DNA of 64,000 nt from Eubacteriales bacterium (GTDB lineage: Bacteria > Bacillota > Clostridia > Saccharofermentanales > DTU023): contig JAUNLW010000004.1 in assembly GCA_030532065.1 (NCBI GenBank), positions 1 to 64,000 on the forward strand. Direction: 5' to 3'. This document shows, in pieces, positions 62,098-63,618 of this stretch (positions within the stretch are counted from its first letter, which is position 1; every line of letters begins with the position of its first letter). The notes under the pieces are model-generated. The model did no database searches. It was given only the letters and a program-made list of their open reading frames with translations, and was not told the DNA's origin. The position numbers and the translations under genes were made by a program.

Positions 62098-63546
62098 TTA
62101 AGGCATATCAACGACCAGACCTTGCAGCAGAGAAATGTTCTGGTCTTCGATGGAATAGATAAAGGGATGATCCACCACGACGATTTTCTGAGGGTTGGGA
62201 ACAGGCATGGCCATGCACTTGGTCTCTATTACGGTTACTACGGCAGCTTCCGTGCCTTCCTCGTTGACTCTCAGCTCCACCCGTTGGAAAGCATTGCCGA
62301 CTTCCAGCGGTAGATCATCCTGGGTAAAGAAACCGAGTTTTCCGTTTTGCAGCAATTCATCCAAGCCCAAGGCTCCTGCGACTTCGCCTAAGTCAAACTG
62401 GCTGCTCAATTCCCATTTGGGAAGGCTCAGGACTACTTCATGCATGGACCAGTCTTCGCTGGCCTTAGCCTCAGCATAGAAATCCCAGTATTCTTTTTCA
62501 CTTACCTCTTGCTTAGGCATTAGGATCAGCATAGCAGCTCCACCTTGGTACGGTTTCTTGATCGCTACATAATCCTCTGTTTCCAGGTAGGGCATATCTT
62601 CAGGCTGTCCCTGCATCATGGGAACTTCCTTCTCACCGGACTGGCCATAGAAAGTTTCATCTGTGGTATTGTCCGGGTCAAATGCGACCGACCAGGCAGC
62701 ACGGAAATAAATGGAGTTGATCAGGATATTCAGAATATCATCCTTGACTTTTTCTTTGATCTCGTCATCGCTATACAGGGGATCAATCAAGCCTTTAGTG
62801 TAATAGCTGATCAGCGCGTTAAGTTCCTTGTAGGTCTCTTCGTCGTGCAGATCAGCCTGGAGCGCGGCCATACCGTTGGCTTTCAGGGCTTCCAAATATT
62901 CCGGAGCAAACTCGATCGACTGGTTGCCCAGCGCAAAGGTATTAGACTCCCAGACTTTGGTATCCCCCTCTGCTTCATAAGCGTATCTGACAGCCAAGGT
63001 GTTCAGGATGCGAATTACCTCTGCTATTTCTTCTTCGCTGAGGCCGGCAGGATTGAGTTTCTCGTCCAAAGTCGCCTGTGCTTCAGGAGAAAGGCCGGGG
63101 CGGAAAGCCATTAAAGCAAGGTACAGTGAAAGAGGCGAAAATCCACTCAGGTCATCCAACTCTTCTTCCATGATTTTGCCCAAAGCGGCAACATTTTCCG
63201 AGAATTTATCTGTCAGCTCAAACCAGTTGTCAGGCAGCTCTTCAGTCTCATTTGGCTTTTCCAGAACCCAATTCAAAGCTTTCAATTCAGGCATCTTTAC
63301 TTCTTCAGCCTCATCTTTATTCTGGCCTTCCGCTTCAGTTTCTTCGTTATTATTTTCGTCTAAATCTGCTTCGGCGTTATTCTGATCTTTGGATTCAGCT
63401 TCATTATTTTGCTTATCTGACTCGGCTTCTGTCTCTTTATTGGCAGGCATACAATAACGAGCGTCAGCCGCCACAAAACCTGTGCTTAGTGGCACCATAG
63501 CCAACAAAACAAAAAGGCTGATAAAAAATTTCATTGTCTTTTTCAT
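62098..63546 (-). CDS. Secreted serpin (serine/cysteine protease inhibitor)
   Basis: A 482-residue exported serpin. A signal peptide (about residues 1-28, cut after FVAADA) is followed by a 60-residue Glu/Asp/Asn-rich spacer. The serpin fold starts near residue 105. NILINSIYFRAAWSVAFD is the shutter signature, and DHPFIYSIEDQ closes the fold. The reactive-loop hinge is NEEGTEAAVVTV near residue 425. Counting as in alpha-1-antitrypsin (P17 = first Glu) places P1 at Met in ETKCMAMP. An intact hinge with small residues implies an inhibitory serpin. AGGAGGT lies seven bases ahead of the start. Bacterial serpins are uncommon and often protect gut anaerobes from host or microbial proteases. Confidence 0.93.
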   Translation of the reverse strand: MKKTMKFFISLFVLLAMVPLSTGFVAADARYCMPANKETEAESDKQNNEAESKDQNNAEADLDENNNEETEAEGQNKDEAEEVKMPELKALNWVLEKPNETEELPDNWFELTDKFSENVAALGKIMEEELDDLSGFSPLSLYLALMAFRPGLSPEAQATLDEKLNPAGLSEEEIAEVIRILNTLAVRYAYEAEGDTKVWESNTFALGNQSIEFAPEYLEALKANGMAALQADLHDEETYKELNALISYYTKGLIDPLYSDDEIKEKVKDDILNILINSIYFRAAWSVAFDPDNTTDETFYGQSGEKEVPMMQGQPEDMPYLETEDYVAIKKPYQGGAAMLILMPKQEVSEKEYWDFYAEAKASEDWSMHEVVLSLPKWELSSQFDLGEVAGALGLDELLQNGKLGFFTQDDLPLEVGNAFQRVELRVNEEGTEAAVVTVIETKCMAMPVPNPQKIVVVDHPFIYSIEDQNISLLQGLVVDMP

Positions 63547-63582
63547 AACTAAGACCTCCTGATTCTTATTTTTCTATTTAAT

Positions 63583-63618
63583 TTACGCGTCTTACGCGTC
63601 TTATGCGTCTTACGCGTC
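63583..63618. repeat. Four tandem 9-mers upstream of the serpin gene
   Basis: TTACGCGTC is repeated four times head to tail; the third unit has one change (TTATGCGTC). Each perfect unit contains the palindrome ACGCGT. The array lies 37-72 bases upstream of the serpin start codon, in the leader or promoter. Confidence 0.9.

What the first reader, a model, noticed from the sequence alone, without database searches (positions are those of the whole stretch)
62098..63546. Secreted bacterial serpin with alpha-1-antitrypsin-like loop spacing
The hinge EEGTEAAVVTV and total loop length place Met at P1 and Ala at P1', a choice that in alpha-1-antitrypsin gives elastase inhibition. The domain is held away from its signal peptide by a long acidic spacer. 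Serpins are sporadic in bacteria, so a host-facing or competitor-facing role is possible.
Basis: partly seen in the sequence, partly recalled or inferred. Interest (0 to 1): 0.55.

Follow-up and report, generated by a model that had tools for sequence, protein, structure and literature searches.

The report
Secreted clostridial serpin, divergent loop
The gene encodes a secreted bacterial protease inhibitor of the well-known serpin family; it is a somewhat unusual member of a group that most of its examined bacterial relatives carry, and its exact target cannot be read from the loop sequence.

Summary
The gene at 62098-63546 (-) encodes a real serpin (Pfam E 1.7e-48) with a signal peptide, an acidic spacer and the quoted hinge. 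Counting from the hinge glycine gives Met445 as P1 and Ala446 as P1'. The loop is five residues longer than alpha-1-antitrypsin's after the predicted bond, a length usual among its relatives. Serpins are not sporadic here: 32 of 38 genomes of the family, 159 of 188 of the order and 169 of 393 sampled from the class have a match. Met at P1 occurs only here among 102 related loops, and elastase cut gut-bacterial siropins at other bonds, so an elastase target is a guess. In 21 close pairs of relatives the loop diverges fast while the hinge is frozen (pN/pS 0.57 against 0.03), as expected of inhibitors with shifting targets. This copy has Val at P10, Gln for the shutter His and Leu for Asn49, which weakens the inhibitory call. 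Structure prediction failed. New member of a known kind; modest interest.

The parts
62098..63546 (-). serpin gene, 482 aa (stop codon included)
63460..63546 (-). signal peptide, residues 1-29, AxA motif at 27-29, no lipobox
   Evidence: read by eye; no signal-peptide predictor was available
63226..63459 (-). acidic low-complexity spacer, residues 30-107 (25 D/E, 8 K/R); holds Cys32
62110..63141 (-). serpin domain, residues 136-479
   Evidence: Pfam PF00079, E 1.7e-48; PDB sequence hits with E down to 1.3e-27
62233..62262 (-). hinge P17-P8, EEGTEAAVVT, residues 429-438; Val at P10 is found in no other of 102 loops
62200..62223 (-). variable loop P4-P4', residues 442-449 (T-K-C-M | A-M-P-V); P1 Met445, P1' Ala446 by count, P2 Cys444
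63555..63560 (-). Shine-Dalgarno-like AGGAGG
   Evidence: sequence
63583..63618 (.). four 9-base direct repeats (TTACGCGTC) upstream of the serpin start; the two-unit pattern matches nowhere else in the genome
   Evidence: function unknown

Best explanation
The gene makes an exported serpin that most likely works as a suicide inhibitor of extracellular serine proteases (subtilisin-, elastase- or HtrA-type) that reach the cell surface. The signal peptide sends it out, and the acidic spacer is a flexible leader. A protease cuts the exposed loop near Met445-Ala446, the loop inserts into the central sheet, and the protease is trapped. Serpin homology and the hinge are shown by sequence; export is read from the signal peptide by eye. 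Inhibition, the cut bond and the target are inferred. Because the loop changes fast among relatives while the hinge stays fixed, the target is likely to differ between species and may be proteases of neighbouring microbes or of a host.
For: Serpin domain E 1.7e-48. Signal peptide and no lipobox (by eye). Gly at P15 in 102 of 102 loops, Thr at P8 in 100, Ala at P12 in 95; the window protein has all three. Across 21 independent close pairs from the order, pN/pS is 0.03 in the hinge, 0.18 in the body and 0.57 in the loop P5-P5': the insertion strand is kept and the bait changes. At 60-70% body identity (65 pairs) the P4-P4' window is the fourth least conserved of 322 windows (0.28 identity against a median of 0.65). 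P1 changes at least 34 times on the tree of 102. The breach Trp (102 of 102 rows) and the Asn186-like residue (91 of 102 rows) are kept here. Characterised clostridial and gut serpins inhibit subtilisins (PinA; PMC8201313 section 11) or neutrophil elastase and proteinase 3 (siropins; PMC5127057).
Against: The pN/pS pairs do not include the window protein; its nearest relative is only 53% identical. Within the hinge it has Val at P10 (Ile in the same-genus relative), where the other 100 of 102 have Ala, Ser or Gly. The shutter His is Gln (39 of 102 rows), Asn49 is Leu (90 of 102 rows have Asn) and Thr72 is Ala (83 have Thr) (position names by recalled alpha-1-antitrypsin numbering). Its Pfam score is among the lowest of the near-full-length serpins in the family. 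Loop pN/pS below 1 can also be relaxed constraint and not diversifying selection. The structure prediction failed. Siropins bound elastase without a visible complex on gels, so even known cases are not all textbook.
Confidence: 0.66

Rival explanations
1. A substrate-like or latency-prone serpin that no longer inhibits: the bulky P10 Val and the changed shutter residues slow loop insertion, so proteases cut it and leave.
For: Val at P10 here and Ile in the same-genus relative against Ala, Ser or Gly in the other 100 of 102 loops; Gln for the shutter His, Leu for Asn49 and Ala for Thr72; long shared branch of the two proteins (1.56 changes per column). Recalled, not from a call: P10 Ala-to-Thr in human C1 inhibitor impairs inhibition.
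Against: P15, P14, P12, P11 and P8 are standard; P10 Val is uncharged; Val at P9 is common (25 of 102); Gln at the shutter His is common too (39 of 102), so it is not by itself a sign of lost function.
Confidence: 0.2
2. One reading: a host-facing elastase inhibitor that uses Met-Ala as the bait, like alpha-1-antitrypsin.
For: P1 Met by count, aligned with the antitrypsin-loop Met without a gap; siropins and tengpin inhibit neutrophil elastase.
Against: Met at P1 in no other of 102 loops; 5 more residues after the predicted bond; elastase cut siropins at P3-P2 or P6-P5; no call gives a host or habitat.
Confidence: 0.12
3. Guard against the cell's own exported proteases, for example its Trypsin_2 (HtrA-like) protein.
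For: One Trypsin_2 match and no subtilase match in the genome. Clostridial PinA is thought to guard cellulosomes from own and foreign proteases (PMC8201313 section 11).
Against: Only two protease families were searched, in a draft genome; no protease gene was recognised beside the serpin (by eye); a conserved own target would predict a conserved loop, whereas the loop varies.
Confidence: 0.1

Closest known systems
Siropins 1 and 2 of Eubacterium siraeum (PMC5127057; sections 5 and 7 and find passages seen)
   Same: Gut-bacterial serpins, one predicted extracellular; conserved hinge; the loop diverges more than the whole (48% loop identity against 60% overall, section 5).
   Different: No direct sequence comparison was made here; siropins have measured inhibition of neutrophil elastase and proteinase 3; the window protein has none measured.
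Same-genus relative L034/L072, MAG 'Clostridiales bacterium isolate SUG1750'
   Same: 53% identical, signal peptide, acidic leader, same loop length (30 from P15 Gly to Pro-Phe).
   Different: P3-P1 is E-G-T instead of K-C-M; Ile-Ala at P10-P9; different gene neighbours.
Conserpin with the alpha-1-antitrypsin loop (PDB 6ee5)
   Same: Serpin domain, hinge EEGTEAA, Met at P1 in the alignment.
   Different: Window protein has five more residues after P3'; P1' is Ala, not Ser; P10-P9 Val-Val, not Ala-Ala.
Miropin of Tannerella forsythia (PMC8201313 section 11 read; the original paper is not held)
   Same: Bacterial serpin whose cut bond cannot be told from counting alone.
   Different: Miropin has measured broad targets; the window protein has none measured; sequences not compared here except as PDB chain 5ncs, E 0.0013 over the loop end.

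Membership tests
Serpin superfamily (PF00079) | Serpin domain by profile | tested here: met
   E 1.7e-48, 166 bits, cut-off 27, profile 25-368 of 370
Serpin superfamily (PF00079) | Serpin fold | tested here: inconclusive
   AlphaFold2 with 2 sequences gave pLDDT 39.8; sequence matches to 188 distinct PDB sequences at E <= 0.001 make the fold very likely
Inhibitory serpins | Hinge motif P17-P9 ExGTEAAAA (as stated in PMC8233489, passage) | tested here: inconclusive
   E-E-G-T-E-A-A-V-V: seven of nine positions fit; P10 and P9 are Val; P10 Val is in no other of 102 loops, P9 Val in 25
Inhibitory serpins | Breach and shutter residues | tested here: inconclusive
   Trp285, Asn277, Ser137, Ser140 kept; Asn49-like is Leu133, His334-like is Gln421, Thr72-like is Ala156 (numbering recalled)
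Inhibitory serpins | Covalent complex with a protease, stressed-to-relaxed change | not testable with these tools
   needs purified protein
Alpha-1-antitrypsin-like elastase inhibitors | Loop length as in alpha-1-antitrypsin | tested here: not met
   5-residue excess after P3' in the alignment to conserpin-AATRCL
Alpha-1-antitrypsin-like elastase inhibitors | P1 Met | tested here: met
   by count and by the conserpin-AATRCL alignment; the real cut bond is unknown
Bacterial serpin group T of PMC8233489 (siropins, miropin, tengpin) | Position in the superfamily tree | not tested
   no reference sequences of groups S-U were put in the tree

The most novel reading that the evidence does not exclude
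The loop thiol is functional. Past the signal peptide the protein has just two cysteines, one in the flexible leader (Cys32) and one at P2 in the bait loop (Cys444), so a disulphide could tie the loop down and make the inhibitor redox-switched. More widely, 27 of 102 serpins of this order carry a Cys in P5-P4', at six different positions, with at least 20 state changes on the tree, and Cys is about nine times as frequent there as in the body. That could mean that loop cysteines are repeatedly selected in exported serpins of these clostridia.
Probability: 0.07. Interest if true: 0.55.

Novelty: new member of a known kind. Interest (0 to 1): 0.27.

Why it matters
The single protein adds one more bacterial serpin. 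The context adds more: in this clostridial order serpins are close to a standard part (159 of 188 genomes), at times in tandem copies, with a frozen hinge and a fast-changing bait loop. This makes the order a natural test set for what bacterial serpins are for, which PMC8233489 calls enigmatic (section 12).

Tried and rejected
The genome-contig scan with the single protein found no relative; a 15-row alignment was too diverged for patterns; the two-row alignment gave one locus, the same-genus relative. Gene neighbourhood: the serpin stands alone between a D-2-hydroxyacid-dehydrogenase-like gene downstream and, on the other strand, a peptide-binding-protein-like gene (names by my reading, no profile run); the neighbours differ in L034, so no operon partner was found. 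The terminator- and promoter-like sites are at chance level. The first loop parse put some rows out of register and was redone. In one search, 102 of 106 non-redundant serpins of 250 aa or more were used; the 4 dropped end before a full loop. Sequences with long masked runs were left out earlier and their number was not printed. Outside the window's family the 40 regions were picked by me from the matches listed, mostly the best-scoring, so the sample leans to high-scoring serpins. A likeness of the loop to human SERPINB1 (recalled to use Cys at P1) was not tested; the only trace is a leukocyte elastase inhibitor chain listed at E 0.0018, with no alignment seen.

Full report
What is there. The ORF at 62098-63546 on the minus strand encodes 482 aa, starts with ATG behind an AGGAGG site, and matches Pfam Serpin over residues 136-479 with E 1.7e-48. 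It is the one serpin match in the 1.6-Mb, 27-contig, 92.87% complete draft genome. The first 29 residues read as a signal peptide with an AxA motif and no lipobox (by eye); residues 30-107 are a low-complexity acidic spacer with 25 D/E and 8 K/R. The chain holds two cysteines, Cys32 and Cys444.

The loop. Gly431 is P15 of the hinge. Counting gives V436 at P10, V437 at P9, C444 at P2, M445 at P1 and A446 at P1'. The alignment to conserpin with the alpha-1-antitrypsin loop sets M445 opposite that loop's Met without a gap and then shows five extra residues after P3'. Alignments to other solved serpins place gaps elsewhere in the loop. In 102 loops of the order the distance from P15 Gly to the Pro-Phe motif runs from 27 to 32, with 30 the commonest (34 of 102), and the window protein has 30. 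So the loop has the length of its relatives, not that of alpha-1-antitrypsin.

How the loop behaves in relatives. Of 102 loops, P1 by the same count is Thr in 38, Ala in 24, Gly in 10 and Ser in 8, and Met only here. P1' is Ala in 38 and Ser in 31. P15 is Gly in all, P8 Thr in 100. In 21 independent close pairs (body identity 75% or more) pN/pS is 0.03 in the hinge (P15-P8), 0.18 in the body and 0.57 in P5-P5'. The 44 overlapping pairs give 0.03, 0.18 and 0.51. The window protein is in none of these pairs. At 60-70% body identity (65 pairs) the P4-P4' window has 0.28 identity against a median window of 0.65, fourth lowest of 322; at 70-80% (25 pairs) fourth lowest of 323; at 80-95% (30 pairs) sixth of 323; at 50-60% (100 pairs) 33rd of 323, so the contrast fades with distance. 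P1 changes at least 34 times and P10 at least 6 times on the tree built without hinge and loop. This is what inhibitory serpins with changing targets should show, but relaxed constraint on the bait would show part of it too.

How standard this copy is. It clusters only with the same-genus relative L034, on a long branch whose deeper place is unsure; the tree tool itself warns of a long-branch join there. It has Val at P10 (Ile in L034; Ala, Ser or Gly in the other 100), Gln at the shutter His (39 of 102 rows), Leu at the Asn49 position (Asn in 90) and Ala at the Thr72 position (Thr in 83). Many serpins of the family carry a lipobox-like Cys after the signal segment (by eye; in the alignment of 102 rows, 58 have Cys at the column of Ser21); the window protein and L034 do not.

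How common serpins are. Matches at E <= 0.001: 32 of 38 genomes of the family, 159 of 188 of the order, and 169 of 393 genomes drawn evenly from the class with at least 90% completeness asked for (165 over the curated cut-off). Several genomes show two to six matches (fragments included), some side by side. The passages I read describe bacterial serpins as sparsely distributed (PMC8233489 section 12; PMC8201313 section 11); for this order they are the rule.

Mechanism. The best reading is an exported suicide inhibitor of extracellular serine proteases; probability about two in three. The target is not known. The draft genome has one Trypsin_2 match and no subtilase match (only these two families were searched), so a foreign protease is at least as likely as an own one. 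The cut bond should not be read off by counting: siropins were cut by elastase and proteinase 3 at P3-P2 and P6-P5 (PMC5127057 section 7), and miropin uses several bonds (PMC8201313 section 11).

Side results. (a) 27 of 102 serpins have a Cys within P5-P4'; 28 of 918 loop residues against 102 of 30,221 body residues are Cys (odds ratio 9.3; Fisher p about 1e-16, which ignores kinship), with at least 20 state changes on the tree. Against a special role of the loop: the stretch after the loop is also richer in Cys than the body (34 of 3,605), and one column there (that of Val458) has Cys in 22 rows. Of the 27, 24 have a further Cys in the body, against 42 of the 75 without a loop Cys; the window protein is one of the 3 that have none in the body, its only partner being Cys32 in the leader. 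The same-genus relative L034 has no Cys in the loop. (b) In the window's family, 7 of 135 serpin frames of 300 aa or more examined (frames from overlapping loci and fragments included) lie directly behind an ECF-sigma-like gene on the same strand, in three genera; in six of them the frames overlap by a few bases, in the seventh (L047, partly masked) there is a gap of about 120 bases. Five of the sigma genes were scanned with Pfam and hit Sigma70 region 2 with E 1.5e-8 or better; an eighth query, a reading frame in L066, hit nothing, and it is another frame of the stretch where L014 has its sigma-like frame. By eye the six overlapping cases carry a short N-terminal segment and a membrane-spanning stretch, so they may be sigma-linked membrane serpins. 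No anti-sigma profile hit was found in the two such serpins scanned with Pfam or the two scanned with NCBIfam. The listings of two paper searches showed nothing on such a pairing. (c) Of 20 long serpin frames picked from other families of the class, 19 begin with what look like S-layer-homology repeats by eye. None of these features is in the window.

Verdict. Observation partly confirmed, interpretation partly supported, new member of a known kind.

Noticed in passing
L062:4680-6846, L063:2261-4340, L064:3251-5285, L067:183-2220, L051:5099-7353, L014:503-2634, L047:2051-3781: In relatives of the window's family, an ECF-sigma-like gene runs into a serpin gene (7 of 135 serpin frames); six of the serpins have by eye a short N-terminal segment and a membrane-spanning stretch. 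A sigma factor paired with a serpin as its possible sensor; nothing on this in the listings of two paper searches.
   Followed up: partly
order-wide serpin set, loops P5-P4': Cysteine is about nine times as frequent in the bait loop as in the serpin body and appears at six loop positions, with at least 20 state changes on the tree.
   Followed up: partly
L114-L132 (other families of the class): Long serpin frames of about 560-680 aa begin with what look like S-layer-homology repeats, i.e. possibly cell-wall-anchored serpins (by eye, no profile run).
   Followed up: no
window 63583-63618: Four 9-base direct repeats TTACGCGTC between the serpin start and the divergent neighbour; the two-unit pattern matches nowhere else in the genome.
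   Followed up: partly
L053, L054, L055, L056, L057, L058: Neighbouring serpin genes in one genome, several with different bait loops.
   Followed up: partly
L052:12248-13665: A gene pair that reads like an IS3-type transposase near the end of the contig (by eye).
   Followed up: no
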